Assembly: GCA_014860585.1 (NCBI GenBank) | Contig: JACZJL010000115.1 | Location: 1 to 37,303 of the forward strand | Reading direction: 5' to 3' | Length of the DNA: 37,303 nt | From: Bacteroidales bacterium | Lineage (GTDB): Bacteria > Bacteroidota > Bacteroidia > Bacteroidales > 4484-276 | Part shown: piece after piece, positions 2,262-29,705 of the stretch | How the letters are laid out: each line of letters begins with the position of its first letter | How positions within the stretch are numbered: position 1 is the stretch's first letter | The notes under the pieces: generated by a model | The model's database searches: none | What the model saw: only the letters and a program-made list of their open reading frames with translations | What the model was told of the DNA's origin: nothing | Translations under genes and position numbers: made by a program

Positions 2262-3823
2262 GATGGTTAACTGCAGATCCTATGATGGGAACCGTTCCTG
2301 CCGGCGGATCAATGAATGTTAACGTTCATTTCAATTCAACAGGAGTTAATCCCGGAACATACAATGGGGCTCTGATCTTCACAAGCAATGCTCCAACAAG
2401 TCCGACTAACCTGCCTGTGACATTTATTGTTGGTCAACCGACTGGCGGACTTACAGTTAATCCAACGGCGATTAACGCATCGCACTATGCTGCTCCACAA
2501 GTAACACAGCATATTTTGAATGCTACCAATACCGGAACTACTCCAATTGCATGGAATCTTGTAATTGACAGAGATGGTTCAATCGGCTTCAAGTATGCTA
2601 CTGAATATGTAAAAGGGTTACCTCCTGTAAGTCATCCCTCAGCATTTGAAAGAGCTCCGGGAACAGCATATGGAAATGAAACCATTCATTCAGACGCTGA
2701 TTATGATTTACAATTCGAATTTGCATGCGGTGATGCTTCCGGTGAAGCCGGTGTTGAAACCGACGGTAACTACATCTACACCACCAAGTGGAATGGCGCT
2801 GGATTCTTCAAGTATGAATTGGACGGTACATTCCTAGGCGCATTCCAGGTAGGATCAGTAAGCGCTATCCGCGACCTGGCCTACGACGGTATGTATTTTT
2901 ATGGCGGTGCTGCTGCAACTACCGTTTACAAGATGGACTTCAACACCAACACACTGATTGGCCAGTTTACTGCTCCTGTTGCTGTTCGCGCTATCGGTTA
3001 CGATGAAGGCGCTGATGGCTTCTGGGCAAATAACTGGTCAACTACATTGACTTTGTTTGACGATGCAGGCGCTGTCCTGAATACTATCGCAACCAATGGC
3101 GACGAAAGTTTCTATGGTCTGGCATACGATCCGCAAGGACCATTCCTCTGGGGTTATAGCCAGCGTGTGGGTACCAGCCAGAACATTCTGTACAAGTACA
3201 ACATTGCAACTGGTGCAAAAATTGAAGAGTTTGACGTATTCCCGCTGCTGAGTATTCCTATTACTGGTGATATTGCCGGTGGTCTTGCTTTCCATCCTGA
3301 TCTTGTTACCGGATACTACTCCATCGTGGGTATTGTTCAGAACAAGTGCATCTGGGGACTTGAAATGGGTATGACTCCTGCTCCTGTAGAATGGCTTACT
3401 GCATCACCAATGTCTGGTACAACTGGCGCAGGTCAGACTTCACAGATCACTGTATCATTGAATTCAGAAGGTCTGGAAGCCGGAGTAACTTACACTGGTG
3501 CTGTTATTTTTAACACCAACAGTCCGGTTACCCCAACTGTTACAGTTCCGGTATCACTCTATGTATCTGGTGTTGGTGTTGGAGAACCCATCACTGATGA
3601 GAGTATGCTTATGTACCCGAATCCTGCAAGCGATGTGTTGAACATCGAAGCAACAGGCATCAAGCATGTAATGATCCTCAACAACCTCGGTCAGGTGGTT
3701 TACGACAGGCCTGCTGATAACGACAATGTTCAGATTAACACCTCGAACTTCGGAACGGGTGTTTACGTTGTCCGCATCAAGACTGCCGATAAATCATACA
3801 CCGAAAAGTTGATCATCCAATAA
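1..3823 (+). CDS. Modular T9SS-exported surface protein with GEVED repeats (5' end missing)
   Basis: The reading frame (codons starting at base 2) is open to the left edge, so the true start lies outside the window; a TTG at 122 is not a real start. Order seen: CARDB-like end, GEVED domain (about 150-520, with YFDVWIDFDGN), Ig-like unit starting WLSAMPLSG (530-700), a beta-rich region (960-1470), CARDB-like domain (about 1480-1790), second GEVED domain (1870-2255), second Ig-like unit (2260-2440), a propeller-like stretch rich in YDG/YDPQG turns (2690-3370), third Ig-like unit (3390-3570), and a type A T9SS sorting domain (3600-3820, with MYPNPASDVLNIEA and a KLIIQ end). It should be exported by T9SS and displayed or released at the cell surface. 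GEVED and these Ig-like units are common in adhesins and secreted enzymes of Bacteroidota; no catalytic domain is visible, but it could lie in the missing part. Confidence 0.9.
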   Translation, partial: TNLAGDENPGNNCKTKAVVNAEPSLCVDNLYTSGCSFGDGLTSWDLENITVANIPCAGTPPWYQNYMDQIHNLEAGNTYVLTVTAGYADTYFDVWIDFDGNLELNNANELVLNDGICAVAGTVYTFNITIPADAPGGTYVMRARTNWTAAVVGACDTYSYGNCVDFKANIGGGQPTDWLSAMPLSGSLGAGQSQIVTVTFNSTGLEVPSIHNGSLIFASNAAGSPHTVPATLVVGGEGPIIVLNPTSLTENHPTPPQQTTQVVNVSNPGTEALTFDIAIQRSSTAGPDVVVDPEYVAAKLAERRAADGIVLGAANGVPGGVSPNMTDDEIIRYDDGTNADAIGLTAGGTFHVSAYWPASTMGQYAGMKLDAVEIFVYDAPTSMTLNIYGAGTPTTPGALLHSQPIAAVAQTWVMTTLTTPVDITGADIWIGYEVTHTAGTFCAGVDPGPAVAGFGDMISLAGGTYESMSISYGLNYNWNIAGYLVAGGPQLTNDVGVQTIISPNSGVALGTESVVIKVKNFGTAAQSNIPWSVTWTGAGSGSLSGTIPGPLAGGADIDVTAGTANLAAFGTYNFEACTNLAGDENAANNCKTKAVVNAEPSLCVDNLYTSGCSFGDGLTSWDLENITVANIPCAGTPPWYQDYTNMLHILEAGNTYVLTVTAGYADTYFDVWIDFDGNLELNNANELVLNDGLCAIAGTVYTFNLTIPADAPNGEFVMRARTNWIDPVTGACDTYSYGNCVDFKAEVGGGTPGGWLTADPMMGTVPAGGSMNVNVHFNSTGVNPGTYNGALIFTSNAPTSPTNLPVTFIVGQPTGGLTVNPTAINASHYAAPQVTQHILNATNTGTTPIAWNLVIDRDGSIGFKYATEYVKGLPPVSHPSAFERAPGTAYGNETIHSDADYDLQFEFACGDASGEAGVETDGNYIYTTKWNGAGFFKYELDGTFLGAFQVGSVSAIRDLAYDGMYFYGGAAATTVYKMDFNTNTLIGQFTAPVAVRAIGYDEGADGFWANNWSTTLTLFDDAGAVLNTIATNGDESFYGLAYDPQGPFLWGYSQRVGTSQNILYKYNIATGAKIEEFDVFPLLSIPITGDIAGGLAFHPDLVTGYYSIVGIVQNKCIWGLEMGMTPAPVEWLTASPMSGTTGAGQTSQITVSLNSEGLEAGVTYTGAVIFNTNSPVTPTVTVPVSLYVSGVGVGEPITDESMLMYPNPASDVLNIEATGIKHVMILNNLGQVVYDRPADNDNVQINTSNFGTGVYVVRIKTADKSYTEKLIIQ

Positions 3824-5964: not shown

Positions 5965-7938
5965 ATGAGAAGAGCTATTCAAATTACCATTCTGGCATTT
6001 ATCTTCGCCATAAATCCCTCAATTTCACAAACCTTACCTGGAAAATTGTTGCTTGTTGGAGGGGGCTCCGAAAATCCCGGCAAATGGAGTGATGTACCCT
6101 ATGGTTGGGCTGTTGAAAAGTCGGAGAATAAGCGGGTCGCCATCATCACTTATGATACCAACCCTTCGCAGTGGCTCCCCGATTATTTTATCAGTCTTGG
6201 CGCAGTGGCCGCAAAAAATTTCTCTATCACCAGCACATCCATGGCCAATCAGCAGCAGACCTATGACAGTCTGGTAACCTACGATGTGATCTTCTTCAAA
6301 GGAGGCGATCAAAAGCAGTATTACAATGTGTATAAAAACACCCTAACGCACAATGCAGTAGAGTTTGTTTTTAACCAGGGCGGGGTAATCTGTGGAACTT
6401 CAGCAGGAGAAATGGTGCTGTCAAGGGTGCTGTTTACGGCGCAAAACGGAACTGTTTATCCCGATGAAGCCATTGCCAACCCTAATAACCAGTACATGAC
6501 GCTGGCCGATGATTTTCTGAATTTGATGCCCGGATATATTTTCGATTCCCATTTTGTCGAACGTGCGCGGTTTGGAAGGTTAATCGGCTTTCTGGGCCAT
6601 TGGAAGCTAAACAAAAATGCGGATATTGTAGGGATTGGCGTGGACGATAAAACTGCTTTATGTATTGATGACGATTTAATGGGTTATGTCTTTGGAACTG
6701 GTGCTGTAAATATTTTCAAAGCTGCTACCGATAATGAATTTAGACTGGGAGGAACCAGACTCCTTGCTACCAGTCTCGAAGTAACCCAGGTGCTCAATGA
6801 GCGTGCAATCAACCTGAATACTTTTTTAGTGTCAGGTTACAATGATTTCATTCCCACAAAATATGAAAGTGAAGATTTCGGTGGATATGTGTTGATGTCT
6901 GGAAGTGATTATGTGAACAAAAACCAGCAATTCATTGCTCGTTTTACCGCAGCGGTTTCATCCGATTCAATCCTGATCGTAACCGGCGATAATACCACTC
7001 TGGCGCAGCAATTTAAAACAAAGTTCGAACAAAGCAACGCCGCCGCCGAGGTGATGCAGGCCATCCCTGCTAACTACAACAGCGCTTATTTTCTTGGAAA
7101 AGTTGACCGGATCAGCAAAGTCTTATTTGTAAACAATACCTATGCGACGTTAATGGAGTTCCTCCAAAACAGTACGGTAGGAAATCTGTTGCTCGAGAAA
7201 CTGCTAAGCGGGGAAAGGACTACCGGTTTTGTGGGTGGCGATAGTCGTTACGCAGGCGGCAGTGTACTTGTAAATTACGACCAGCAATATGCTTCCTATG
7301 ACGGACTGCTTGAGTTTGACCCTGGAATCGGATTATTAAAAAGCATGATCATCATGCCAAAAACTTTTGAAAACACCGACATTGAAGAAAATGCTGCTGC
7401 CGGAGTCCCATTCGGGATGATTCTCGACAGCCTGAAATACGGGATTTGGCTACACGACAACGCCTTCGCTGAATACAAAGTCAATGATCAGAATGAAACT
7501 ACCATCACTTCCTTTGGCAGCTATCCTATGATGCTAATAGAGTCAGAAGGAACACACGGAGCGTTTTCCGATCAGTCGGCGGTTAACTCTGGAAGGCCAA
7601 GACATGTTGCAGGATTTGAGCTGTTTAATGTGACTTTGATGGACGAAAGTATGATAAAAATACTCGGCAGCCACACCAGTATCAGCAAACCTGCTGAAGC
7701 TGCCATACTCTCAATTTATCCAAATCCTGCCAATGACATGATCAGTATTTTCGTAGATAATGATCAGGATTATCTGCTGAAAATTCTCTCAGTTGATGGC
7801 AGAATGGTGTTCCAGCAAATGATCAGCGGGTCGGTTAATTTGCATGTTAGCGATCTGCCAAATGGTATTTACATTATTACAGCCACCGCAAGGGAAACCG
7901 GATGGCAATATCACCAGAAGTTGATCATTCGGAGATAA
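5965..7938 (+). CDS. Secreted peptidase S51 (cyanophycinase-like) protein with T9SS sorting domain, 657 aa
   Basis: An N-terminal signal peptide (MRRAIQITILAFIFAI...) is followed by a peptidase S51/cyanophycinase-like domain (about 25-250): LLLVGGGSE near the start, FFKGGDQ, the nucleophile elbow CGTSAGE with Ser146, DSHFVERARFGRL with His196, and GIGVDDKTAL with an acidic pair at 227-228. These line up with the Ser/His/acidic triad of cyanophycinase. Residues about 300-570 look like a second, degenerate copy lacking the Ser. The C-terminus (about 580-657) is a type A T9SS sorting domain with IYPNPANDMISIF. The ATG at 5965 gives a proper signal peptide and sits 24 bp after a promoter box; a longer reading from 5908 would start upstream of that box. 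Cyanophycinases cleave multi-L-arginyl-poly-L-aspartate to beta-Asp-Arg; the true substrate here is not known. Confidence 0.85.
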   Translation: MRRAIQITILAFIFAINPSISQTLPGKLLLVGGGSENPGKWSDVPYGWAVEKSENKRVAIITYDTNPSQWLPDYFISLGAVAAKNFSITSTSMANQQQTYDSLVTYDVIFFKGGDQKQYYNVYKNTLTHNAVEFVFNQGGVICGTSAGEMVLSRVLFTAQNGTVYPDEAIANPNNQYMTLADDFLNLMPGYIFDSHFVERARFGRLIGFLGHWKLNKNADIVGIGVDDKTALCIDDDLMGYVFGTGAVNIFKAATDNEFRLGGTRLLATSLEVTQVLNERAINLNTFLVSGYNDFIPTKYESEDFGGYVLMSGSDYVNKNQQFIARFTAAVSSDSILIVTGDNTTLAQQFKTKFEQSNAAAEVMQAIPANYNSAYFLGKVDRISKVLFVNNTYATLMEFLQNSTVGNLLLEKLLSGERTTGFVGGDSRYAGGSVLVNYDQQYASYDGLLEFDPGIGLLKSMIIMPKTFENTDIEENAAAGVPFGMILDSLKYGIWLHDNAFAEYKVNDQNETTITSFGSYPMMLIESEGTHGAFSDQSAVNSGRPRHVAGFELFNVTLMDESMIKILGSHTSISKPAEAAILSIYPNPANDMISIFVDNDQDYLLKILSVDGRMVFQQMISGSVNLHVSDLPNGIYIITATARETGWQYHQKLIIRR

Positions 7939-8032
7939 GAACTTCAGAACAACTGACCTCTGTGGAATTTAAAATGATACCATAGCTCATGGGGAGTAAT
8001 TTTTTATGACCTTGCCAACTTCAAGTAAAAAT

Positions 8033-8197
8033 ATATAGTCCAACCCATACTGGGTTGTTTTTGGCGTTGGTGAACCCTCATAGCTACAAAAGCCCAACCC
8101 ATTCTGGGTTGGCAAAAAAACTCCGTAGGAGATTGACTATTGTAGCATAACGATGATAAAGTGATTAAATGACAACCCAGTATGGGTTGGACTATAT
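8033..8197. repeat. Cluster of three REP-like palindromes (CAACCCA-nnn-TGGGTTG)
   Basis: Palindromes at 8041-8057 (spacer TAC), 8094-8112 (CCAACCCA TTC TGGGTTGG) and 8173-8189 (spacer GTA). The outer two are exact inverted copies over 26 bp (8033-8058 and 8172-8197). Between them lie a smaller palindrome, CTCCGTAGGAG (about 8121-8131), and an inverted GCTACAA/TTGTAGC pair bracketing the middle palindrome. This looks like a mosaic of REP/BIME-type repeats. No RAYT transposase gene is in the window. Confidence 0.75.
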
Positions 8198-8284
8198 TCC
8201 AAACTACCTTTACCATTCGAATTTAGTTAAATTCCAGTTCGTTTGGTCTCAGGAAAGTTAATTTGTAAACCGCCTCTAAAGTTT

Positions 8285-8316
8285 TGACAATCTGTATCAA
8301 ATGGGATTTGATGTCA
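8285..8316. repeat. Nested inverted repeat
   Basis: ATCAAAT (8296-8302), spacer GGG, ATTTGAT (8306-8312), with an outer TGACA (8285-8289)/TGTCA (8312-8316) pair overlapping the inner arm. Could be a protein-binding palindrome or part of the surrounding repeat island; no gene lies close enough to decide. Confidence 0.4.
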
Positions 8317-8320
8317 GAAT

Positions 8321-8352
8321 TTAACGGATACCTTCAAAAAGGTATAAGTTAA
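8321..8352. repeat. Hairpin TTAAC-GG-ATACC / GGTAT-AA-GTTAA
   Basis: Two 5-bp arms on each side, separated by a symmetric 2-nt internal mismatch, with an 8-nt loop (ttcaaaaa). It has no T-run, so it is not a standard terminator. It sits just left of the 167-bp inverted-repeat element. Confidence 0.5.
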
Positions 8353-8387
8353 AAATCCGGGAATCAAAGATTAAAAGGTTCAATGCC

Positions 8388-8554
8388 AGTTCTACTTTAA
8401 CACATTTGATTTTTCTGCATTTTTACCCCGCCCTTCCCATAGGGATCCCTCCGGGAAAAGGGAGAATGCAAAAAATCAATTCAAACTCCCTTAAGGGTTG
8501 GAGCAATTTTGAATTGATTTTTCATTCATGGTTTTGATCTGTTAAAGTAGAACT
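8388..8554. mobile_element. MITE-like 167-bp element with 15-bp terminal inverted repeats
   Basis: Ends AGTTCTACTTTAACA (8388-8402) and its exact reverse complement (8540-8554). Inside, a second exact 15-bp inverted repeat (8471-8485 with 8508-8522) encloses the palindrome CCCTTAAGGG, and a third partial pair (tgatttttctgcattttt with aatgcaaaaaatca) joins the left side to the centre. It has no coding capacity. Size, terminal repeats and lack of genes fit a MITE or a highly structured intergenic repeat; I could not see a convincing target-site duplication. Confidence 0.5.
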
Positions 8555-8729
8555 AGTTACTTAATTTTTAGGGGTCAGTTGGTCTGAACTTATAGGGATA
8601 AACTAAATCTGAGAAACCCAGTTTCAGTTAATTATTCGTGTAAAGAACTGTTTGTCCGTTGTTCAGATACGACACCCAGTTCACGTTGCACCACAATCCT
8701 CTGATCGAAACAAGCTAAGGAGAAATTGC

Positions 8730-8737
8730 TATTTTTG
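8730..8737 (+). promoter_or_regulatory. Bacteroidota -7 box (TATTTTTG) for the sigma factor gene
   Basis: Perfect TAnnTTTG match with predicted transcription start near 8744, giving a leader of about 93 nt before the ATG at 8837. No clear -33 element. Confidence 0.45.
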
Positions 8738-8836
8738 CTACAATCTAAATCTTCCGGAATTTCGGAGTGACGGGGATATTCACAACAATTTTTGTAGCAC
8801 AATAAAAACTCAAGCTGCTGAAAGCTCTACTTCGCA

Positions 8837-9397
8837 ATGGATACTGAAGATGTAAGACTGATGGAGATGTTCGAGAGCAACCGTGAGGACGCTTTCAGGG
8901 AGCTTTTTGTCCGGTATTACAAGCCCATGGTGCTGGCTGCCAGGATTTATTCAAACAATAATCCTGAGGCAGAAGACATGGTCCAGCAGTTTTTCGTGAA
9001 GTTCTGGGAGGAAAAGCTGTACAGGAAAATCAATACCTCTTTCAAACATTACCTGCGGATTTCGGTGCGCAACACCTGTTTTAACCATCTCAATCGTTTA
9101 ATGATCCGTCAGCAACATGAACCTGATTCTGATCTGGAGTCTGAGGTTGAACAGGCAATAGATTTTATACTTCGGAAAGAGGAGCTCGAAATTTTTGAAA
9201 AGGCGTATGATGAATTGCCACCCCAAAGCCGCAAGGTTTTCGAGCTGGTTTATTTTTCCGATCGGTCGTACAATGAAGCAGCCCAAATGCTTGACCTTTC
9301 GATAAACACAGTTAAATCACACCTTAAAACTGCTGTCCGAATCCTTAAAAACAGTACTTTGCTGAACAATTATTACTGCGACAGAAAAAAATCCTGA
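8837..9397 (+). CDS. ECF RNA polymerase sigma-70 factor (FecI/SusCD-associated type), 186 aa
   Basis: Sigma region 2 spans about residues 15-85 (DAFRELFVRYYKPMVLAA... AEDMVQQFFVKFWE), and region 4 about 125-180 (LPPQSRKVFELVYFSDRSYN, then the helix-turn-helix AAQMLDLSINTVKSHLKTAV). Length is normal for the Bacteroidota group of ECF factors encoded next to FecR and SusC. It should direct RNA polymerase to the SusCD promoter when released by the FecR protein encoded 44 bp downstream. The ATG at 8837 gives a full region 2. Confidence 0.93.
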   Translation: MDTEDVRLMEMFESNREDAFRELFVRYYKPMVLAARIYSNNNPEAEDMVQQFFVKFWEEKLYRKINTSFKHYLRISVRNTCFNHLNRLMIRQQHEPDSDLESEVEQAIDFILRKEELEIFEKAYDELPPQSRKVFELVYFSDRSYNEAAQMLDLSINTVKSHLKTAVRILKNSTLLNNYYCDRKKS

Positions 9398-9441
9398 GTT
9401 AGACCCACCCTTTTTCATAAAAAATTTGTCCTATAAACGAT

Positions 9442-10632
9442 ATGAAAGAAATTAAAGAATCCTTTTCTTTTCCGGACGAGATTTTGCATTTGCTTACGCA
9501 TAAAGCGCTGGGCAAGCTTGATGCCTCTGGTCTTGATAAACTGAATGGCTGGATACGTGAAAATCCAGATGCAGAGCCTGAATGCAACGTCTTTATGGTC
9601 AAGGTTAAAAAAATACATTGGACTTATTATTCAAATGAAATTGCTGATCCAAACGTGGTGATAGAAGAATATCTGCCCATGAAATCAGACAAGCGTCCCT
9701 TCATTCACGTGGTTTACCCTTACCTTGCCATGGCAGCTACCCTGCTCATTCTCATCGGTTTTATATGGTATTTTGTATATCATCGGGACAGAAAGAGTGC
9801 TGAAACTGCCCATAACGAAACCCCGGCTCTTGAACGGCAAAACAAGGCAATACTCGTGCTCTCTGATGGCAAAAGTCTGGAACTTGACAATTCGGGTTGT
9901 GATGAGTTGACTGCTGAAAGTGGTGTGAGAATTACCAATCAGCCGGGAGAATTATTACGTTATGAGCAGGAGCAGGCAGTAGATGATGAAAGTCGCATGA
10001 ATCGCCTGATTGTACCCTCCGGGGCCCGTTACCAGTTGCAACTGGCCGATGGTACCAAAGTGTGGATGAATTCTCATTCTGAACTTGAGTACCCGGTTTC
10101 ATTTACTGGTGACAAACGGAAAGTCAGGTTATCAGGAGAGGCCTATTTTGAAGTAATGGCAAACCCTTCTGCCCCTTTCATTATTGAGGCCAATGGTTAC
10201 GAGATCTTTGTATTTGGCACTCAACTGAACATATCTGCCTATTCCGGCGACAGTTTTATTCAAACAACCCTGGTGAGTGGCGCACTCGAGGTGAACAGCC
10301 GCGAAGGTGATGCTTACAAGCTGACTCCCGGTCAAATGGCTATGATAGTTCATGACGACCAGAAGGTTTTAATAAACAATGTTGACACAAGATTATTCAC
10401 TTCATGGCGTGACGGTATTCTGTATTTCAATAAAATTTCATTGAAAGAACTGGCTGTTAAACTGGAGCGCTGGTATGATGTGGAAATACTTTTCGACAGT
10501 GACCAAACCGCCGGCCTGCTGTTTAGCGGAGCAATGGAAAATTCCCGTGATATCCAGTTTCTTTTAAGGCTGATCGGGGAGGCGGCCAATGTTGAATTTG
10601 AAATAGAGGGAAAACAGATTTATGTGAAATAA
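9442..10632 (+). CDS. FecR-type anti-sigma factor, 396 aa
   Basis: Cytoplasmic N-terminal anti-sigma part (1-90), one membrane helix at about 93-115 (PYLAMAATLLILIGFIWYFV), periplasmic FecR domain at about 188-285 (VPSGARYQLQLADGTKVWMN, LSGEAYFEV, FGTQLNISAY, TLVSGALEV), and a C-terminal DUF4974/STN-like domain at about 328-396 (YFNKISLKELAVKLERWYDV, then FSGAMENSRDIQFLL). This is the complete Bacteroidota FecR layout. It should hold the adjacent sigma factor inactive until the N-terminal signalling domain of the SusC transporter, occupied by substrate, contacts it across the periplasm. Confidence 0.93.
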   Translation: MKEIKESFSFPDEILHLLTHKALGKLDASGLDKLNGWIRENPDAEPECNVFMVKVKKIHWTYYSNEIADPNVVIEEYLPMKSDKRPFIHVVYPYLAMAATLLILIGFIWYFVYHRDRKSAETAHNETPALERQNKAILVLSDGKSLELDNSGCDELTAESGVRITNQPGELLRYEQEQAVDDESRMNRLIVPSGARYQLQLADGTKVWMNSHSELEYPVSFTGDKRKVRLSGEAYFEVMANPSAPFIIEANGYEIFVFGTQLNISAYSGDSFIQTTLVSGALEVNSREGDAYKLTPGQMAMIVHDDQKVLINNVDTRLFTSWRDGILYFNKISLKELAVKLERWYDVEILFDSDQTAGLLFSGAMENSRDIQFLLRLIGEAANVEFEIEGKQIYVK

Positions 10633-10634
10633 AA

Positions 10635-10662
10635 ACCGGGAAATGCTGCAACATCTCCCGGT
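10635..10662 (+). promoter_or_regulatory. Hairpin between fecR and susC
   Basis: ACCGGGA (10635-10641) pairs with TCCCGGT (10656-10662); after one mismatch, ATG (10643-10645) pairs with CAT (10652-10654), loop of six. It begins 3 bp after the FecR stop. No T-run follows, so it may be an mRNA-processing or stabilising structure or a weak terminator separating constitutive regulators from the inducible transporter. No TAnnTTTG box was seen in the 70 bp before SusC, as expected if the ECF factor drives it. Confidence 0.5.
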
Positions 10663-10732
10663 AGGCTAACAATCAAGGTACTGAATGTGCAAAAACAGAA
10701 CATCAAATGATCATAAACCTTAATACAAAAGT

Positions 10733-13700
10733 ATGAATAAAAATTTACGGGACTGTACCCCACAAGTGGGGTCAACATTCAAACTTATTGCAATTGGTAT
10801 GAAACTATTTTTATTACTCACTTTTGCTGGTGTAATTCAGGCCTCTGCATCGGTGCTTTCGCAAAACAACCTGATCAGTATGAAGTTGCAGAACGCAACA
10901 GTTTATGAAGCTGTCAACGAAATTGCACACCAAATGGATTTGCTTTTCATTTTCCAGGAATCCGACGATCTGGACAGCAAAAAGATCAATGTCGACTTAC
11001 AGATGGCCAGTTTTGAAGACGCTATGAAGGAAGTGCTGAAAAGCAGCAACCTCAGTTATGATCTCATCGAGAATTACATTGTGGTTAGACCGGTTAAAGT
11101 GAAACCGGAAGCACTAACAGCCGTTGCCAGTTTCCAGCAGAGCGAAAGACGCACCATCACGGGTACTGTTACCTCAGCGGAAGATGGAGCTACTATTCCT
11201 GGAGTATCGATAGTTGTGAAAGGTACCAACATTGGCACTACCACCGATATTGATGGAAAATATCAGCTTTTGGTTCCGGTTGAAAGTACCCATCTGGTAT
11301 TTTCATTTGTAGGCATGGTTACTCAGGAAGTCGCCATCAACAACAGGGCTGAGATCAATATTGTAATGGAATTGGCCTCGCTTGACCTTGGTGAACTGGT
11401 CGTAGTAGGTTATGGAACTGAATCCCGTCGCCTGGTATCAGGTTCGCTGGGAGTAGTGAGCGATACCGAAATCCGTGATGTACCTATGCGAACCATCGAC
11501 GGAGTACTGCAGGGGCGCTCGCCAGGTGTGTTTATCAGTCAGAATTCAGGAACCCCGGGAGGCGCAAATTCTGTAAGAATCAGGGGTAACAGTTCTATCA
11601 CTGCCGGCAATGAACCATTATATGTTATTGATGGTATCCCGATGACAACAGGAAATTATGGTCAGATTGGTTTTTCAGGGCAGGAGATCAATGCACTTTC
11701 AGATATCAATCCCAACGATATCGAATCCATCACGGTGTTGAAAGATGCATCTGCTGCAGCCATTTATGGCGCAAGAGCAACCAACGGTGTAATTTTAATT
11801 ACTACCAAACGGGGAAGTCAGCAACGCACCAACATCAATTTCAACGGATCCTGGGGTTTTCAGAAAGTTGACAAAGTACTGAAGATGCTTAATGCTGATC
11901 AATGGCTTGACTATATGGAACTGGAGCCCGATCCTGAAAACCCGGTCGATGTCAACTACCTTGACGAAGTATTCCGCGTTACTCCAATGAGTAGTTATGA
12001 GTTGTCAGCTGACGGGGGTGATGAGAGAACCAGATTCTTCATATCAGGAAATTACTTTGACCAGACAGGGATACTGCTTGGGACTGATTTTAAGAGAATA
12101 AATGGTAGAATGAACCTTGATCATCAGCTCAATACAAACATTAAAGTTGGCGCCAGTTTGGGAACCAGCTATTCGCTGAACAACAGGGTGGAGGGCGATC
12201 GTTCGCTCCATGGTGTATTGCCCAACTCTATTTCCAGGCCTCCCGTCTATCCGATCTATAATCCCGATGGAACTTACAACCAGGATGGCTTTTTCTCCAA
12301 TCCTATTGCCATCGGGAACGAAGCCATCAATGAAGCATATTCTTTCAGAACCCTCGGAAATATTTATGGAGACTTACGCTTTAAGGAACACTTTACTTTC
12401 AGCACAAAATGGGGTTTTGACTACCTGAGTTTGCGAGAGCACAGCTACGATCCTGTTACAACAAGACAGGGCGCTACTACCAACGGTCTGGGTATCGAGG
12501 CACAGACCAATGTTCTGAACATCGTTTCGAATAACCTCCTCAGATACAACAATACATTTAACAGTTTACACAATGTGGAAGCTCTCGCCGGATACTCATT
12601 TGAAATGTTTCAACGGCGCAGCCAGTATGCCGAAGGAATTGACTTCCCGGGAGACCAGTTTCAATATCTTCTTGATGCAGGAACCATCCGACGGGCCGAT
12701 GCATCAGCAACCGACCGGGGCATCAATTCTTTCTTCGGGCAGTTGAAATACAACTTCGACTATAAATACATTGTCTCGTTTAGTGGACGATATGATGGAT
12801 CTTCAAAATTCGGAACCAATAACCGCTACGGCTTTTTCCCTGCAGCCTCTCTGGCATGGCGTTTAGGCGAAGAAGATTTTTTCAAAGCCCTCAACCTGCC
12901 CGTAAATGAATTCAGGCTGAGAGCCAGCTACGGTTTAACCGGAAACGATGGAATACCCGATTTTGCTTATATGGACCTTTACAGAGGTCGGTCTAACTAC
13001 CTTTCAAGTGCAGGTATAGCTCCGGCAGCCCTTCCTAACCCCGACCTGAAATGGGAAACCACCAGGCAGATCAATATCGGCGCAGATATTGAATTGTTTA
13101 AGGATAGGGTTGCGCTGACATTGGATTACTATCACAACAAAACCAGTGATCTCCTGTTTAACAGACCCATTTCGATGACGTCAGGCTTCTACTCAGTTAC
13201 TACAAACATCGGAGAACTCGAAAACAGGGGAATTGAATTTTCACTGAACACTGTCAATGTCACGAACAATGATATTGAATGGAGTACGAAATTCAACATC
13301 AGTCGTAACAGAAACAAAGTGCTTTCCCTTTACAAGAATCAGAATCTTCTCGATCTTGACAGATACAGCCCCAATGCAGTTATTGTAGGGGAGCCCATGA
13401 GTGTCTTTTATGGCTTCCGAAGCCTGGGCGTTGATCCTACTACCGGTGACCTGGTATTTGATGATATAGATGGCAACGGCGTGATCAATTCCGACGACCG
13501 CGTTGTGATCGGTGACCCAAACCCGAATTTTATCGGTGGTTTTACAAGCAATCTCGCTTACAAATCTTTTGATTTAAGCTTCTTCATTCAGTTTAGTTAT
13601 GGAAATGATGTTTTCAATGCCACCCGAATATTTACCGAAGCCATGACTTATGCTGATGAAAATCAAAGTATTGAAATTCTAAAACGCTGGAAGCAACCTG

Positions 13701-14026
13701 GTGATATCACCGATATTCCCAGAGCAGATGGCGATAATTCGAACGAAAACAACAGGATATCCACCCGCTTTGTTGAAGATGGCTCTTTTGCCCGCTTTAA
13801 GAATATTACACTTTCATATGTGTTTGACCGTAGTCTTACCGAACGTATTGGTGTAAGGAATGCCCGCATTTTTGTTGGTGCTACAAATCTGTTCACATGG
13901 ACCAATTATTCGGGAATGGATCCCGAGGTAAATTACCGTGGCGACAGCAATCTTCTAAGAGCAACGGATTTCTTTACCTATCCCCAGGCAAAAACATATA
14001 CAATCGGAATTAACTTAGGCCTTTAA
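10733..14026 (+). CDS. SusC/RagA-family TonB-dependent outer-membrane transporter, 1097 aa
   Basis: Long-n-region signal peptide (1-44, core MKLFLLLTFAGVIQASASVL), STN signalling domain (about 50-110, ATVYEAVNEIAHQMDLLFIF), carboxypeptidase-regulatory-like domain (about 137-224, TGTVTSAEDGATIPGVSI... GTTTDIDGKY), the VVVGYGT segment typical of SusC, plug domain (PLYVIDGIP, IESITVLKDASAAAIYGARA), then a 22-stranded type barrel to the C-terminus. It imports a ligand captured by the SusD partner, powered by TonB. The STN domain marks it as a signalling transporter coupled to the FecR/sigma pair upstream. Substrate cannot be read from sequence; barrel homology to glycan or peptide transporters would have to be tested by phylogeny. 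Confidence 0.96.
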   Translation: MNKNLRDCTPQVGSTFKLIAIGMKLFLLLTFAGVIQASASVLSQNNLISMKLQNATVYEAVNEIAHQMDLLFIFQESDDLDSKKINVDLQMASFEDAMKEVLKSSNLSYDLIENYIVVRPVKVKPEALTAVASFQQSERRTITGTVTSAEDGATIPGVSIVVKGTNIGTTTDIDGKYQLLVPVESTHLVFSFVGMVTQEVAINNRAEINIVMELASLDLGELVVVGYGTESRRLVSGSLGVVSDTEIRDVPMRTIDGVLQGRSPGVFISQNSGTPGGANSVRIRGNSSITAGNEPLYVIDGIPMTTGNYGQIGFSGQEINALSDINPNDIESITVLKDASAAAIYGARATNGVILITTKRGSQQRTNINFNGSWGFQKVDKVLKMLNADQWLDYMELEPDPENPVDVNYLDEVFRVTPMSSYELSADGGDERTRFFISGNYFDQTGILLGTDFKRINGRMNLDHQLNTNIKVGASLGTSYSLNNRVEGDRSLHGVLPNSISRPPVYPIYNPDGTYNQDGFFSNPIAIGNEAINEAYSFRTLGNIYGDLRFKEHFTFSTKWGFDYLSLREHSYDPVTTRQGATTNGLGIEAQTNVLNIVSNNLLRYNNTFNSLHNVEALAGYSFEMFQRRSQYAEGIDFPGDQFQYLLDAGTIRRADASATDRGINSFFGQLKYNFDYKYIVSFSGRYDGSSKFGTNNRYGFFPAASLAWRLGEEDFFKALNLPVNEFRLRASYGLTGNDGIPDFAYMDLYRGRSNYLSSAGIAPAALPNPDLKWETTRQINIGADIELFKDRVALTLDYYHNKTSDLLFNRPISMTSGFYSVTTNIGELENRGIEFSLNTVNVTNNDIEWSTKFNISRNRNKVLSLYKNQNLLDLDRYSPNAVIVGEPMSVFYGFRSLGVDPTTGDLVFDDIDGNGVINSDDRVVIGDPNPNFIGGFTSNLAYKSFDLSFFIQFSYGNDVFNATRIFTEAMTYADENQSIEILKRWKQPGDITDIPRADGDNSNENNRISTRFVEDGSFARFKNITLSYVFDRSLTERIGVRNARIFVGATNLFTWTNYSGMDPEVNYRGDSNLLRATDFFTYPQAKTYTIGINLGL

Positions 14027-14037
14027 AAACAAGAAAG

Positions 14038-15396
14038 ATGAAAAAACTATTCTATTTTTCAGTATTGATGACCCTGTTCCTTGGAGCTTGCGAAGTTCTG
14101 GATGTTGAGCCCTATCATTCCATACCGGCTGATGAAGCCATCACAAATGCCCAACAGGCCGAAAGTGCTATTTTGGGGTGTTATGATGCGTTGCAAAGTG
14201 ACGGATACTATGGATTAAACTATATGATTTTTGGCGATTTACCTGCTGATAACCTGACACATGTTGGGGTGACCGTAACATGGGTTCAATTTGATAACAA
14301 TGCCATACTGGCCGATAACGGTCTGGTTGAAAGCACATGGGCTGCCATTTACCGGGTGCTCAACCGGGTAAATAATGCCATTTACCATATCCAGTTGATT
14401 GATGGTGATAAAATGACTGAGGATTCCAAAAATGTGGCTTTAGCCGAACTCAGGTTTTTACGGGCACTTGCCCACTACGACCTGATGCGGCTGTTTGGTC
14501 CTGTTCCTTTGCGCGATCAGGCTGTCGGCAACAATGAAGAAAGCTATAACCCGGCAAGAAACAGTGTTGAAGAAGTCCTGCTGAGTGTAAAAAGTGATCT
14601 CGATTTTGCCATCAACCTCCTTTCTCCAGCCATAACCAAAGGCAGAGCATCTAAACCCGCTGCACAAGCTTTGAAAGCACGCATAGCTTTGCATCAGTAT
14701 TATATTTCCGGTAATGCTGCTTTCCTGACAACAGCTATTGACATGGCCACCCAGGTCATTGATCATCCGTCTCTGCAACTTGTACCTGATTATGCCACCC
14801 TTTTTAATATTGAATTTGAGAACAACAGCGAATCCATTTTTCAGGTGACTTATAACGATCAGGACAGGAACCTTACTGCCAGGTATTTTGCTCATACATC
14901 AAATGAAGGGAGATATGAGTTTGCACCTACCACATTTTACATGAACTCATTTGAAACCAATGACGTGCGCAAGGACGCCTCCGTGAAAATGGCCGGATCT
15001 GCACCCTATGCAGTTAAATTTAATGATGTTGCTTCGGGTACTGACCCTGTTTACGTGTTGCGCCTTGCTGAAATCTATCTGATCAGAGCCGAAGCGAAAA
15101 TCCTTCAGCAGGGTAATATTGACGATATTCTGAACGACGTCAACATTATACGTCAGAGAGCAAATCTGCAACCTGTAAACATGACGAGTTATGCCAGCCT
15201 GAAACTGGAAGTAGAATCACAAAGGCAAAAAGAGTTTGCATTCGAAGGTTACCGTTGGTTCGACCTGGTAAGAACCAACCGTGCCATTGAAGTGATTGAC
15301 AAAATCACCAACACCAATCAATACCTTTTCCCGATCCCGCAAGCCGAAATCATTGCTAACAACAACCCTGGCATGTATCAGAATGATGGTTATTAA
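14038..15396 (+). CDS. SusD/RagB-family surface lipoprotein, 452 aa
   Basis: Lipoprotein signal peptide with lipobox LGAC (Cys18). N-terminal SusD helices carry the usual NAQQAESAILGCYDALQS region, and LAELRFLRALAHYDLMRLFG (TPR helix) is diagnostic. The C-terminal part contains VLRLAEIYLIRAEA, NIIRQRA, and the FAFEGYRWFDLVR motif, ending in PIPQAEI..NPGMYQN. SusD forms the lid over SusC and binds the ligand at the cell surface. The gene starts 11 bp after susC ends, so the pair is one transcript. Confidence 0.96.
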   Translation: MKKLFYFSVLMTLFLGACEVLDVEPYHSIPADEAITNAQQAESAILGCYDALQSDGYYGLNYMIFGDLPADNLTHVGVTVTWVQFDNNAILADNGLVESTWAAIYRVLNRVNNAIYHIQLIDGDKMTEDSKNVALAELRFLRALAHYDLMRLFGPVPLRDQAVGNNEESYNPARNSVEEVLLSVKSDLDFAINLLSPAITKGRASKPAAQALKARIALHQYYISGNAAFLTTAIDMATQVIDHPSLQLVPDYATLFNIEFENNSESIFQVTYNDQDRNLTARYFAHTSNEGRYEFAPTTFYMNSFETNDVRKDASVKMAGSAPYAVKFNDVASGTDPVYVLRLAEIYLIRAEAKILQQGNIDDILNDVNIIRQRANLQPVNMTSYASLKLEVESQRQKEFAFEGYRWFDLVRTNRAIEVIDKITNTNQYLFPIPQAEIIANNNPGMYQNDGY

Positions 15397-15416
15397 TATC
15401 TTAACATTTATTGAAT

Positions 15417-16316
15417 ATGAAATCAAAAAAAAATAATCTGTTCATTGTTGCCTGCCTGACATTTTTCCTGTTCTTTTTGCAAGCTTGTAAAGAAGATGAA
15501 ATGTCGGTTCCCCTGGCAAGTACACAAGCCGACTTTGTATACGAAGTCAACGAGTTGGTGATCAGTGAAGATACTGTGCATTTTCAGGTTCAATTAACTA
15601 ATAAGTCGCTGAATGCTAATGCTTATCACTGGGATTTTGGCAACGGGCTATTTTCATCAGAGGAAAATCCGGTTGTTACCTATACAACCTCGGGGAAATA
15701 TAGCATAGTGCTTACTGTTACAGCCGAAAATGCAGACCTTTATTACAATAACTTGTCAAAAAGTGTTTCACTTGCGCTTGGGAAACAGGTGCTGCTTTTC
15801 GAAGATTTCGGTTCCGCCGGCGCTCATCTTGAGGATGATTCATGGGCGCCCGAAGGTTGGCAGGCCGTTGACAGTGATGGCGATGGTTATAATTGGTATG
15901 CTAGCTTCAGAATCTCAGAAGGTGATAGCATTTTCTCTGTACGCAGCCAATCATGGGATGGCGACCCGTTGACTCCGGACAACTGGTTGATTACACCAGA
16001 AATTAACCTGTCGGGATTTGCCGAGGATGCAAGTGCAACGTTTAGGTTTACAGTCGGTATTACAGCCAATACCCCGCAATACAGGAAAGAGCATTATGGT
16101 GTATTCATCGCAGTAGGAAGCAGTAATATTTCTGCATTTGAACTACTGCTGGAGGAAACATTTACTGAAGAAACGCCCCGAATGACGCCGCTTGAACGGG
16201 AAATTGACATTTCAGCCTACGCAGGCAATATTGTTTTCCTCGCAATCAGGCACTTTAATGTTACCGATATGGATCGGATGTTTGTGGAGGAAGTGGAACT
16301 TTTTGTCATTGAATAA
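15417..16316 (+). CDS. Lipoprotein with PKD and choice-of-anchor J (cleaved-adhesin) domains, 299 aa
   Basis: Lipobox LQAC with Cys24 after a phenylalanine-rich core, then a PKD domain (about 35-115: AYHWDFGNGLFSSEENPVVT), then a choice-of-anchor J/cleaved-adhesin jelly roll (about 120-299: LLFEDFGSAG, PEGWQAVDSDGDGYNWY, SQSWDGDPLTPDNWLITP, DISAYAGNIVFLAIRHFNVT). The ATG at 15417 is preferred to a TTG 6 bp upstream. It begins 20 bp after susD, so it is in the operon and takes the position of the surface glycan-binding protein (SusE/F-like) in polysaccharide loci. Likely a surface binding protein for the imported ligand; this role is inferred from position. Confidence 0.85.
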   Translation: MKSKKNNLFIVACLTFFLFFLQACKEDEMSVPLASTQADFVYEVNELVISEDTVHFQVQLTNKSLNANAYHWDFGNGLFSSEENPVVTYTTSGKYSIVLTVTAENADLYYNNLSKSVSLALGKQVLLFEDFGSAGAHLEDDSWAPEGWQAVDSDGDGYNWYASFRISEGDSIFSVRSQSWDGDPLTPDNWLITPEINLSGFAEDASATFRFTVGITANTPQYRKEHYGVFIAVGSSNISAFELLLEETFTEETPRMTPLEREIDISAYAGNIVFLAIRHFNVTDMDRMFVEEVELFVIE

Positions 16317-16368
16317 TTTAAACAATTTCAACTTATTTAATATCATTACTAATCAAAAACATTTTACT

Positions 16369-17232
16369 ATGAAAAAGTTATTTTTACTTTCAGTCATCCT
16401 GGCTTTGTTTGTTGGAAACAATTACAGCCAGGCACAGCCAAAGGGAATCAATGCCGAGTACCTTCTTTCATGGGATGTATGCCCAACTGCCAACACAGTC
16501 CAATACCGGGCTGAGCATTACAGCGTTTGGATTTCGACAACAGGAAACACCCCGGGAGATTTTACTACCATGTTGTTCGAAGAAACCCTTTCGACTGAAC
16601 ACACCAACTGGGTGTATGAAAACAGGCAGGTAAATATTGATGATTATGCCGGCAGTAATGTCTATGTAGCCTTCAGGCATCACGACATTACCGATATGGA
16701 CCGTATTGTCATTGATAATGTCAAATTGTATAGAGTCAATGACGGTGACGAAGATGAAGTGATTTATCTGTTTGAAGATTTCCAGGGAGGCATTGGCAAT
16801 CCGCAGGGTGAGGATTGGCTGCCCGAAGGCTGGATTGCTGTTGATGCCGATGGAGATAGCTTCAACTGGTATTTCGGCGAAAGAGAAGGAGAAGGCGCCA
16901 TGAGAAGCCAATCATGGGATGGCGATCCGTTGACACCGGATAACTACCTGATCACATCTTCGGTTTTTCTGGGAACAGTTGGAATAAACCAATTCCGGGA
17001 AACAGTGATCAACGTATTCCCGAATCCGGCAACTTCAACTATTTCAATCCAAAGCGATGTTCCCATCCACCAGATTGAATTAGTAAATATGCTCGGTGCA
17101 ATTGTTTTGAGCGAAAAAACTGACGCTTCCAATTTGAAGGTTGATGTTAGCCAGCAAGATCTTGGCATGTATTTTTTGCGGCTGCACACCGGCAATGGTG
17201 TTGAAACCAGAAAAATCAATATCAGCAGATAA
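16369..17232 (+). CDS. T9SS-exported protein with reordered choice-of-anchor J halves, 287 aa
   Basis: Signal peptide (MKKLFLLSVILALFVGNNYSQA). Residues about 30-127 match the C-terminal half of the J domain of the upstream lipoprotein (VQYRAEHYSVWI, NIDDYAGSNVYVAFRHHDIT). Residues about 134-195 match its N-terminal half (LFEDFQGG, PEGWIAVDADGDSFNWY, SQSWDGDPLTPDNYLIT). The T9SS type A sorting domain follows (about 210-287, NVFPNPATSTISI). So the halves appear in swapped order, and no complete J domain is present in the normal order. Start: ATG at 16369; an upstream extension of the frame runs into the preceding gene and lacks a start of its own. It lies 52 bp after the lipoprotein gene and is probably co-transcribed. 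No catalytic motif seen. Confidence 0.85.
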   Translation: MKKLFLLSVILALFVGNNYSQAQPKGINAEYLLSWDVCPTANTVQYRAEHYSVWISTTGNTPGDFTTMLFEETLSTEHTNWVYENRQVNIDDYAGSNVYVAFRHHDITDMDRIVIDNVKLYRVNDGDEDEVIYLFEDFQGGIGNPQGEDWLPEGWIAVDADGDSFNWYFGEREGEGAMRSQSWDGDPLTPDNYLITSSVFLGTVGINQFRETVINVFPNPATSTISIQSDVPIHQIELVNMLGAIVLSEKTDASNLKVDVSQQDLGMYFLRLHTGNGVETRKINISR

Positions 17233-17458
17233 AAAGGCTACTGCTGCGGTTTTATGATAATGATATGAACAATTCATATTGTGGAATCGCATCATAGACT
17301 TTATTCCACGCAAAGAGCGCAAAGATTTCGCAAAGCACGCTGATTTCAAGTGATGTGAAGCAAATAATTTGCGTTCTTTTCGTTACATGTTTTCGGGTTT
17401 TGCGTGGACCATTTCCTTAATTGTAACTCAGCCTCAGCATTTAACGAAAATAATACTT
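17233..17458. repeat. Decayed CGCAAAG-type intergenic repeat
   Basis: Three CGCAAAG units in a row (17309-17335: acgcaaag, gcgcaaag, tcgcaaag) and a 10-bp inverted repeat tccacgcaaa (17305-17314)/tttgcgtgga (17399-17408). This resembles a degenerate version of the CGCAAAG-rich hairpin repeats often seen between genes in Bacteroidota. The rest of the interval shows nothing I can name; ataatttgc near 17364 is one base short of a -7 box. Confidence 0.5.
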
Positions 17459-18310
17459 ATGCAAAGACTTATCAGTGCGATAATTATACTGGCAATCCTT
17501 TTTAATGCCTGCAATCATGCGGAAACCACCGATGAGCCTAAAGGCAAACTTTTTATCATTGGTGGAGGTAAGCGTCCATCTGCAATGATTCAGCGCATGA
17601 TCCGTGAAGCAGGGTTGGACAGGGGAGGCTTTATTGTCATCCTGCCTATGGCCAGCAGCGAACCCGATACTTCCGTATTTTATGCCACAAAGCAGTTTAA
17701 GGAGCAGGGAATCAATAATATTGCCGGCTTCTGTTTTTCAAAGGAGGCAATGGCAACTCCCGGTCAAATCGACTCACTGGAAAAAGCAGCGTTGATCTAT
17801 ATTACAGGCGGAGACCAGAATACTTTTATGGATATTGTTGCCGGTACTACAATTGAACAAGCAATTAAAACCTGCTTCTGCAATGGCGGTATGATAGCCG
17901 GAACCAGCGCCGGAGCTGCCGTGATGAGCGAAAAAATGATCACTGGAAACGAACTCAAACAAACCGATTACCGCGATACATTCCGCACAATTGAGGCGGA
18001 TAACATAGAACTTGGAACCGGGCTTCGGCTGATCACCTCGGCTATCATTGACCAGCACTTTGTTTGGCGCAGTCGTCATAACCGCCTTATTACCGCCGTT
18101 ATCGAACATCCTGAGCTTAAAGGAATCGGGATTGACGAAGCCACAGCAATACTGGTTATCGGTAATACCGCAGAGGTGGTGGGCGAATCACAGGTGTTGA
18201 TTTACGAAAACTCTGACCGTGTAAGCATTACGGATGAAAACGGAAAATTCGGCGCGCCACAGTTAACTTTGAGGGTGTTACTTCCCGGAGATACATTCAG
18301 GCTGCAATAA
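17459..18310 (+). CDS. Cyanophycinase-like peptidase S51 lipoprotein, 283 aa
   Basis: Lipoprotein signal with lipobox FNAC (Cys18), then a complete S51 domain: GKLFIIGGGKRP, IYITGGDQN, nucleophile elbow GTSAGAAVMSE with Ser150, IDQHFVWRSRHNRL with His200, GIGIDEATAI with D226/E227. These match the cyanophycinase pattern (nucleophile Ser, His of the DQHF block, Glu of the IDE block). Length fits a single-domain cyanophycinase plus lipid anchor. The ATG at 17459 gives the lipobox; an upstream TTG/ATG reading would bury it. Predicted activity: cleavage of cyanophycin or related aspartyl peptides at the envelope. It follows the SusCD group after 226 bp, so it may have its own promoter. Substrate is inferred from family. 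Confidence 0.88.
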   Translation: MQRLISAIIILAILFNACNHAETTDEPKGKLFIIGGGKRPSAMIQRMIREAGLDRGGFIVILPMASSEPDTSVFYATKQFKEQGINNIAGFCFSKEAMATPGQIDSLEKAALIYITGGDQNTFMDIVAGTTIEQAIKTCFCNGGMIAGTSAGAAVMSEKMITGNELKQTDYRDTFRTIEADNIELGTGLRLITSAIIDQHFVWRSRHNRLITAVIEHPELKGIGIDEATAILVIGNTAEVVGESQVLIYENSDRVSITDENGKFGAPQLTLRVLLPGDTFRLQ

Positions 18311-29394: not shown

Positions 29395-29605
29395 CTATTT
29401 TTTAGTTAAATATAAACTCAATCCAAATTTTAAATGTGGTCATTTGACAATTTAGCCATGGTTAACTGCTGTTTCAATGTCTAATGAAATGGAGTTTTAT
29501 AAAGAAAATCAACCGTGCTGCGTAAAAATACCCATATTGAAAATAGATGTAAATACTCTCAAAAATGGGGTATTTACAAGGATTCTGCGGTTTTACAGAT
29601 TTCAA

Positions 29606-29613
29606 TAATTTTG
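29606..29613 (+). promoter_or_regulatory. Bacteroidota -7 box (TAATTTTG) for the porin gene
   Basis: Perfect TAnnTTTG match with predicted transcription start near 29620, giving a leader of about 86 nt before the ATG at 29706. No clear -33 element. Confidence 0.45.
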
Positions 29614-29705
29614 CAGAACATTTGATAAAATGGGTGTTTGATTTTCGTAAAGTGTCATTTTCAAAGATAGCACTCATTTACATGCCAAAGATAAAGGATA
29701 CAAAA

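What the first reader, a model, noticed from the sequence alone, without database searches (positions are those of the whole stretch)
5965..18310. A SusCD uptake locus lying between two exported cyanophycinase-like peptidases
In this stretch the sequence shows, in order, a T9SS-type S51 protein, the palindrome island, ECF sigma, FecR, SusC with STN domain, SusD, a PKD/J-domain lipoprotein, a J-domain T9SS protein and an S51 lipoprotein. There is no glycoside hydrolase. S51 enzymes cut cyanophycin to beta-Asp-Arg or cut aspartyl peptides. Together this suggests an inducible surface system for a peptide-like nutrient, possibly cyanophycin, with cleavage outside and in the envelope, import by SusCD, and PepE (35751-36488) in the cytoplasm for alpha-aspartyl dipeptides. 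A cyanophycin-specific Sus-like locus would be unusual. The two S51 genes may also be coincidental neighbours, because one is 900 bp from the sigma gene and the other 226 bp from the operon.
Basis: partly seen in the sequence, partly recalled or inferred. Interest (0 to 1): 0.72.

Follow-up and report, generated by a model that had tools for sequence, protein, structure and literature searches.

The report
SusCD locus for scavenging cyanophycin
This stretch of a Bacteroidota-type genome most likely encodes a surface system that cuts up and imports cyanophycin, the nitrogen-storage polymer of cyanobacteria; a locus of this kind has been reported before, and here it turns out to recur in many relatives with the same set of parts.

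Summary
In detail: gene order and domains are confirmed, and none of the eight genes of the interval is a glycoside hydrolase. The S51 genes are not coincidental neighbours. The window's SusC lies in a fully supported clade of 38. Of the other 37 loci, 31 carry S51, 24 an isoaspartyl dipeptidase (IadA) and 16 a DcuC/YfcC-type carrier, against 2, 0 and 0 of 68 SusC loci outside. The closest relative (SusC 78%) has ECF-FecR-SusC-SusD-PKD/J-J/T9SS-IadA-S51 plus the T9SS-S51 within about 13 kb. The own genome has IadA and the carrier on other contigs and no cyanophycin synthetase over cut-off. The S51 lipoprotein passes NCBI's cyanophycinase cut-off. The T9SS S51 is a tandem: one S51 domain with Ser and His kept, one degenerate. 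No evidence ties in PepE, 17 kb away. Best reading: a split variant of the 'cyanophycin utilization locus' reported for strain L21-Spi-D4 (original paper not readable here). Substrate and activity are untested, and the nearest solved homologue of both S51 proteins is titled 'pseudo-CphB'.

The parts
5965..7938 (+). S51T9: exported S51 peptidase with T9SS C-terminal domain. N-terminal S51 domain (residues about 25-255) with Ser, His and an acidic residue kept; middle domain (about 262-575) is a second, degenerate S51 domain; Por tail 584-655
   Evidence: PF03575 37.1 bits, PF18962 44.5 bits; TIGR02069 95.2 bits, below cut-off 126.6; middle domain:
7940..8591 (.). Intergenic island with inverted repeats; holds repeats dispersed in the host genome, not judged part of the system
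   Evidence: 31 matches in the own genome, the window included, 21 of them to about 8390-8565
8837..9397 (+). ECF sigma factor
   Evidence: TIGR02985 126.9 bits, cut-off 126.4
9442..10632 (+). FecR-type anti-sigma factor
   Evidence: PF04773, PF16344
10733..14026 (+). SusC TonB-dependent transporter with N-terminal STN-like domain; member of the S51-linked SusC clade
   Evidence: TIGR04056 873 bits; tree; linkage
14038..15396 (+). SusD surface lipoprotein
   Evidence: PF07980, PF14322; seven relatives 35-47% identical
15411..16316 (+). PKD + choice-of-anchor-J lipoprotein (CKEDE at the lipobox Cys), proposed polymer-binding surface protein
   Evidence: PF07675, PF18911; a similar or another PKD-type protein follows SusD in many relatives
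16369..17232 (+). Choice-of-anchor-J protein with T9SS C-terminal domain
   Evidence: PF07675, PF18962; orthologue in L195
17459..18310 (+). S51L: cyanophycinase-family lipoprotein
   Evidence: TIGR02069 149.3 bits over cut-off 126.6; motif residues kept

Best explanation
[quoted passage not shown] Proposed mechanism: (1) surface PKD/J proteins and SusD bind the polymer; (2) the T9SS-delivered S51T9 cuts it outside the cell; (3) SusCD imports oligomers with TonB energy; (4) the S51L lipoprotein trims them to beta-Asp-Arg in the envelope; (5) a DcuC/YfcC-type inner-membrane carrier, encoded on another contig, takes up the dipeptide or Arg; (6) IadA, on another contig, splits beta-Asp-Arg to Asp and Arg; (7) substrate-loaded SusC signals through its STN domain to FecR and the ECF sigma factor. 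Shown here: the genes, their linkage in relatives, kept catalytic motifs, IadA and carrier present in the genome, no CphA1 over cut-off. Inferred: substrate, activities, cellular side of each enzyme, carrier role and induction.
For: SusC clade of 38 (100% local support, FastTree) with S51 in 31/37, IadA in 24/37 and carrier in 16/37 of the other loci, against 2/68, 0/68 and 0/68 outside (Fisher 3e-18, 1e-14, 4e-9). Of 27 SusC orthologues (E <= 1e-220) among 393 genomes of the order, 22 (window included) have S51 in the fetched stretch, and 2 more look split by contig ends. The nearest relative L195 has IadA inside the operon. S51L exceeds the cyanophycinase cut-off, as do the S51L proteins of the three relatives scanned. 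In 34 S51L proteins the Gln of GGDQ, the elbow Ser, D, Q and H of DQHF, two Arg and the Glu are invariant; the first Arg is Lys in one. Own genome: IadA 462 bits over cut-off 331, carrier 707 bits, an Asparaginase_2, no CphA1 over cut-off (best 100 of 850).
Against: No biochemical or expression data. In this genome IadA and the carrier are not in the locus. By sequence the nearest solved homologue of both S51 proteins is 7uqv, titled 'pseudo-CphB'; I recall, not read here, that it was found inactive. S51T9 falls below the cyanophycinase cut-off (95.2 of 126.6), and so does its relative in L210 (74.1). Six of the 37 clade loci (L075, L083, L199, L201, L213, L215) show no S51 in the fetched stretch, of which L075, L083 and L213 are not short contigs. 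SusC's nearest solved relatives are unspecified SusC homologues and RagA, so homology does not name the cargo.
Confidence: 0.75

Rival explanations
1. The locus imports other beta-aspartyl or isoaspartyl peptides (from damaged proteins, polyaspartate or variant polymers), with cyanophycin at most one of the substrates.
For: [quoted passage not shown] S51T9 is below the cyanophycinase cut-off.
Against: S51L is over the cut-off and keeps the Arg residues after DQHF and the Gln of GGDQ, which I recall as substrate-binding in Synechocystis CphB.
Confidence: 0.15
2. The S51 proteins are catalytically weak or inactive binding proteins, like pseudo-CphB, and degradation depends on other hydrolases.
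For: Best sequence match of both is 7uqv, titled pseudo-CphB; the second domain of S51T9 has Ala for Ser in 8 of 25 readable tandem proteins.
Against: Catalytic Ser and His invariant in 34 S51L and in 32 S51T9-type proteins; S51L also matches CphB structures 3en0 and 7uqw at E 3.8e-21 and 1.2e-20.
Confidence: 0.08
3. The S51 genes are coincidental neighbours of an ordinary polysaccharide SusCD operon.
For: S51 genes also occur without SusCD (13 weaker S51 loci); cargo not tested.
Against: 31/37 against 2/68 for S51 and 24/37 against 0/68 for IadA; label shuffles on the SusC tree as clustered: 0 of 500; no glycoside hydrolase among the eight genes.
Confidence: 0.02

Closest known systems
Cyanophycin utilization locus of strain L21-Spi-D4 (Salinivirga cyanobacteriivorans; Ben Hania et al. 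2017, not held; known here through PMC10206079 and PMC6243061)
   Same: Cyanophycinases plus a transporter in a Bacteroidota scavenger (PMC10206079, sections read); two S51 proteins, one plain and one with a Por secretion domain (PMC6243061, passages read). I recall its abstract likening the transport complex to polysaccharide utilization loci.
   Different: Reported with iadA in the locus; in the window iadA and the carrier lie on other contigs. I could not identify the Salinivirga genome; the unnamed single-contig genome G223 (L210) is a candidate only.
Polysaccharide utilization loci (SusCD, ECF/FecR-controlled)
   Same: SusC, SusD, surface lipoproteins, ECF sigma and FecR
   Different: No carbohydrate-active enzyme in the interval; the hydrolases are S51 proteins; SusC belongs to an S51/IadA-linked clade
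Extracellular cyanophycinase CphE and intracellular CphB (family S51)
   Same: S51 fold and Ser/His/acid motifs
   Different: S51T9 is a tandem of an intact and a degenerate S51 domain with a T9SS tail; S51L is a lipoprotein tied to SusCD
Peptide-importing SusCD pairs (RagAB, BT_2263/2264)
   Same: Import of peptides by SusCD is known (recalled); RagA and BT_2264 are among the nine solved SusC matches
   Different: To my recollection they take protein-derived peptides and are not linked to S51/IadA; not tested here

Membership tests
Cyanophycin utilization locus (as described for L21-Spi-D4) | Cyanophycinase gene(s) in the locus | tested here: met
   TIGR02069 149.3 of 126.6 for S51L
Cyanophycin utilization locus (as described for L21-Spi-D4) | Transporter in the locus | tested here: met
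   SusC and SusD
Cyanophycin utilization locus (as described for L21-Spi-D4) | iadA in the locus | tested here: not met
   The genome's only IadA over cut-off is at C134:42174-43325, not in the window. In the nearest relative L195 it is in the operon
Cyanophycin utilization locus (as described for L21-Spi-D4) | Scavenger: no cyanophycin synthetase CphA1 | tested here: met
   Best match 100 bits against cut-off 850; genome 96% complete in 194 contigs, so a missed gene is possible
Cyanophycin utilization locus (as described for L21-Spi-D4) | Degradation or uptake of cyanophycin shown | not testable with these tools
   needs bench work
Cyanophycinase (TIGR02069 equivalog), S51L | Score over curated cut-off; catalytic Ser, His, Glu | tested here: met
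Cyanophycinase (TIGR02069 equivalog), S51T9 | Score over curated cut-off | tested here: not met
   95.2 against 126.6; it is S51 by Pfam (37.1 against 23.9)
Polysaccharide utilization locus | SusCD pair | tested here: met
Polysaccharide utilization locus | Carbohydrate-active enzymes in the locus | tested here: not met
   none among the eight genes of the interval
S51 fold, middle domain of S51T9 | S51 fold | tested here: met
   ten best PDB entries by VIA-align all S51-type, Z 12.4-8.8, next row 7.5; hhalign E 8.9e-6, probability 83, to S51L. Limits: model mean pLDDT 53 and poor global superposition in Foldseek, TM 0.30-0.36

The most novel reading that the evidence does not exclude
A dedicated SusC lineage for a non-glycan storage polymer has spread across Bacteroidota (Bacteroidales, Flavobacteriaceae and Cyclobacteriaceae records are in the clade) as a main route for scavenging extracellular cyanophycin, served by a T9SS-borne tandem cyanophycinase whose degenerate second S51 domain has become a built-in partner or polymer-binding module.
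Probability: 0.4. Interest if true: 0.62.

Novelty: new variant of a known kind. Interest (0 to 1): 0.47.

Why it matters
Cyanophycin is a large nitrogen store of cyanobacteria and is said to resist ordinary proteases (recalled). A recurring SusCD-S51-IadA-carrier module, also found in named strains (Winogradskyella psychrotolerans RS-3, Gelidibacter algens ACAM 536), would give a marker for cyanophycin scavengers in metagenomes and make the uptake route testable. PMC10206079 (Discussion) says that the isoaspartyl dipeptidases of Firmicutes and Bacteroidota remain undiscovered in many cphA1-bearing genomes; the linkage seen here concerns scavengers, where IadA is the evident candidate.

Tried and rejected
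Coincidence of neighbours: rejected by linkage counts. PepE as the cytoplasmic partner: tblastn of PepE against the loci then held hit only the window's own copy and L055, but the stretches mostly end short of 17 kb from S51, so this is absence of support, not disproof; in the window PepE is followed by a methyltransferase, with NusA and IF-2 about 7-11 kb before it. The intergenic 'palindrome island' as part of the system: 7940-8591 gave 31 matches in the own genome (window included), 21 to about 8390-8565, no full second copy, so it holds dispersed repeats. SusC or SusD homology to solved structures as a cargo predictor: uninformative. ECF and FecR as marks of the clade: no difference, 15/37 against 30/68 and 15/37 against 28/68. 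One hhalign run, middle domain against the N-terminal domain of S51T9 itself, gave no usable output. Two SusC loci outside the clade had 51-bit IadA-profile hits (L140, L145), below the threshold of 200 used.

Rows dropped: before the tree fragments L046, L048, L084, L089, L091, L126, L136, L197, the duplicate L079 (taken as L047 from contig length and scores), and any locus without a SusC frame of 900 aa; for the residue counts L079, S51L-type proteins at 200 bits or less (among them the fragments in L073 and L217, the two Chitinophaga proteins and the 13 weaker S51 proteins), and S51T9-type at 100 or less.

Papers: searches for cyanophycin with SusD (2 papers), cyanophycinase with Bacteroidetes (22, 15 listed), 'cyanophycin utilization' (2), TonB-dependent (17), Salinivirga (2), cyanophycinase with catalytic triad and substrate binding (1), pseudo-CphB (0), polysaccharide utilization loci (3). 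Passages or sections were read in PMC10206079, PMC6243061, PMC8880816, PMC12590107 and PMC5543034; the rest were seen as listings only, so I cannot say that nothing else is in print.
Full report
What is in the window. The window is the whole contig C115 of a 4.73 Mb genome. The genome has three S51 matches at E <= 0.001, all on this contig: the T9SS-type S51 (S51T9), the S51 lipoprotein (S51L) and PepE. S51L scores 149.3 bits on NCBI's cyanophycinase model (cut-off 126.6); S51T9 scores 95.2, below it; the third scores as dipeptidase PepE. No call names the organism; Bacteroidota is inferred from SusCD, T9SS tails and the titles of the nearest named loci.

Linkage in relatives. I searched 79 genomes (own included) with S51L and with SusC. 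The best SusC hits lay on the same contigs as S51L hits in G043, G010, G003, G002, G024 and G035 (in G035 about 11 kb apart). Against: in G021 the two were on different contigs, and G007, G031 and G009 had a strong SusC but no S51L hit at E <= 1e-15; profiles later found two S51 genes beside SusC in G031 (L047). A search of 393 genomes of the order with SusC gave 27 at E <= 1e-220. I fetched the stretches and scanned them with profiles built from the first loci. In 22 of 27 (window included) an S51 gene lies in the fetched stretch. The other five: G357 and G374 end in a locus gene and have another contig that starts in the same kind of gene and carries S51 (adjacency inferred); G173 has S51T9 on another short contig; G148 has both S51 genes on another contig; G207 has none in the stretch, and its SusC falls outside the clade below.

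SusC tree. In a FastTree tree of 106 SusC proteins the window's SusC falls in a clade of 38 with 100% local support. Of the 37 other loci in it, 31 have S51, 24 IadA, 16 the DcuC/YfcC-type carrier, 20 S51T9, 28 S51L and 18 both S51 types; of 68 SusC loci outside, 2, 0, 0, 0, 1 and 0. ECF and FecR do not separate the groups (15/37 against 30/68; 15/37 against 28/68). Loci were picked by SusC or SusD similarity in most cases, not by S51, but the profiles were seeded from clade loci. Stretches reach about 20 kb at most and some are cut by contig ends. FastTree support is not a bootstrap, and some long branches were flagged.

Closest relative and split parts. G168 (L195; SusC 78%) has ECF, FecR, SusC, SusD, the PKD/J lipoprotein, the J/T9SS protein, IadA and S51L on one strand and S51T9 on the other, in about 13 kb. 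The window's version lacks IadA between the J/T9SS gene and S51L. The own genome has an IadA at C134:42174-43325 (462 bits, cut-off 331), beside a Sua5-like gene (name recalled from its sequence), and the carrier at the very end of contig C111 (707 bits). It also has an Asparaginase_2 gene and no CphA1 over the cut-off (best 100 of 850 bits). Over 79 genomes IadA is over cut-off in 17: in 9 of the 11 genomes that I count as bearing this SusC (835 bits or more, plus G021 with a broken SusC) and in 8 of the 68 others. The two without IadA, G007 and G009, are 84% and 64% complete.

A second context for S51. Thirteen weaker S51 hits (28-34% identical to S51L) lie in loci without SusCD. In the two whose neighbours I scanned, L055 and L060, a cyanophycin-synthetase-like gene lies next to the S51 (TIGR02068 824.8 and 316.1 bits, both under the cut-off of 850) together with IadA. 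These look like storage clusters. By eye 10 of the 13 proteins lack an export signal; those in L054, L059 and L064 look exported. They contrast with the exported S51L and S51T9.

Active sites. In 34 S51L proteins (window included) the Gln of GGDQ, the Ser of GTSAG, D, Q and H of DQHF, the second and third Arg after it and the Glu of GIDE are invariant; the first Arg is Lys in one. That these match Ser132, His174, Glu201 and binding residues of Synechocystis CphB is recalled; S132 is named in the title of 7uqw. In 32 S51T9-type proteins Ser and His are invariant and the acid is Asp in 20 and Glu in 12.

Tandem S51 domains. The middle of S51T9 (about 262-575) has no Pfam match at E <= 0.01. Three tests point to a second S51 domain: hhalign of its alignment against S51L gives E 8.9e-6, probability 83 (the N-terminal domain gives 2e-30); Foldseek with an AlphaFold model of the region alone gives 7uqv at 4.1e-7, though with TM only 0.30-0.36; VIA-align's ten best entries are all S51-type, Z 12.4 to 8.8, against 7.5 for the next. 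The model is weak overall (mean pLDDT 53), its core at 62-91. At the nucleophile position the residue is Ser in 17 and Ala in 8 of 25 readable tandem proteins, and no DxH motif is seen at the matching place of the seven-protein alignment, so the domain is probably inactive. 26 of 32 S51T9-type proteins have the domain, one of them only in part (L225). As I recall that CphB is a dimer, a fused partner domain is a natural guess, untested.

Mechanism. The proposed chain is given in Best explanation. Only gene content, linkage and motifs are shown. The PKD/J lipoprotein reads C-K-E-D-E at its lipobox, which resembles the Bacteroidota surface lipoprotein signal (recalled), so it is probably outside. 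S51L's side of the membrane is open. The carrier's nearest NCBI model is 'putative basic amino acid antiporter YfcC', below its cut-off (372.9 of 500, for the L039 protein), so its cargo is a guess.

What is known. PMC10206079 (sections 6 and 8 and passages read) cites Ben Hania et al. 2017 for a 'cyanophycin utilization locus' with cyanophycinases, iadA and a transporter in strain L21-Spi-D4, and a cluster in Flammeovirga pacifica WPAGA1. PMC6243061 (passages read) says that Salinivirga cyanobacteriivorans has two S51 proteins, one with a Por secretion domain, and that their context differs from that in its own strain. Ben Hania 2017 is not held; that its abstract likens the transport complex to polysaccharide utilization loci is recalled. 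So the kind is known. What I did not meet in the searches (mostly listings) is the breadth of the clade with counts, the dispersed variant of the window and the tandem S51 architecture.

Weak points. Nothing here shows that cyanophycin is the substrate. The nearest solved homologue of both S51 proteins by sequence is titled pseudo-CphB. Six of 37 clade loci show no S51 in the stretch, three of them (L075, L083, L213) not explained by short contigs.

Noticed in passing
window 7940-8591, mainly about 8390-8565: Intergenic stretch holds dispersed repeats: 31 matches in the own genome (window included), 21 to about 8390-8565; parts of the 8033-8197 palindromes recur on contigs C116, C122 and C98.
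   Followed up: partly
L232 9166-10329 (own genome C134); L053, L056: IadA of the own genome sits beside a Sua5-like gene; in two genomes of the same family (G011, G005) a weaker S51 gene sits beside the same kind of gene.
   Followed up: no
L044 10265-11044: A 260-aa protein weakly S51-like (51 bits) without the GGDQ, GTSAG and DQH motifs lies directly before S51T9 in G035: another degenerate S51.
   Followed up: no
L087 11359-12351 and L088 11320-12234: Chitinophaga filiformis and C. pinensis have a divergent S51 gene directly behind a SusCD pair outside the main clade.
   Followed up: partly
L077, L078: Winogradskyella psychrotolerans RS-3 and Gelidibacter algens ACAM 536 carry ECF-FecR-SusCD-S51L plus a short S51T9-type protein; possible test organisms.
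   Followed up: partly
window 122-3823: Large T9SS protein with GEVED domains at the contig's left end.
   Followed up: no
window 29565-30959: Protein of the Alginate_exp family some 11 kb beyond the locus.
   Followed up: no
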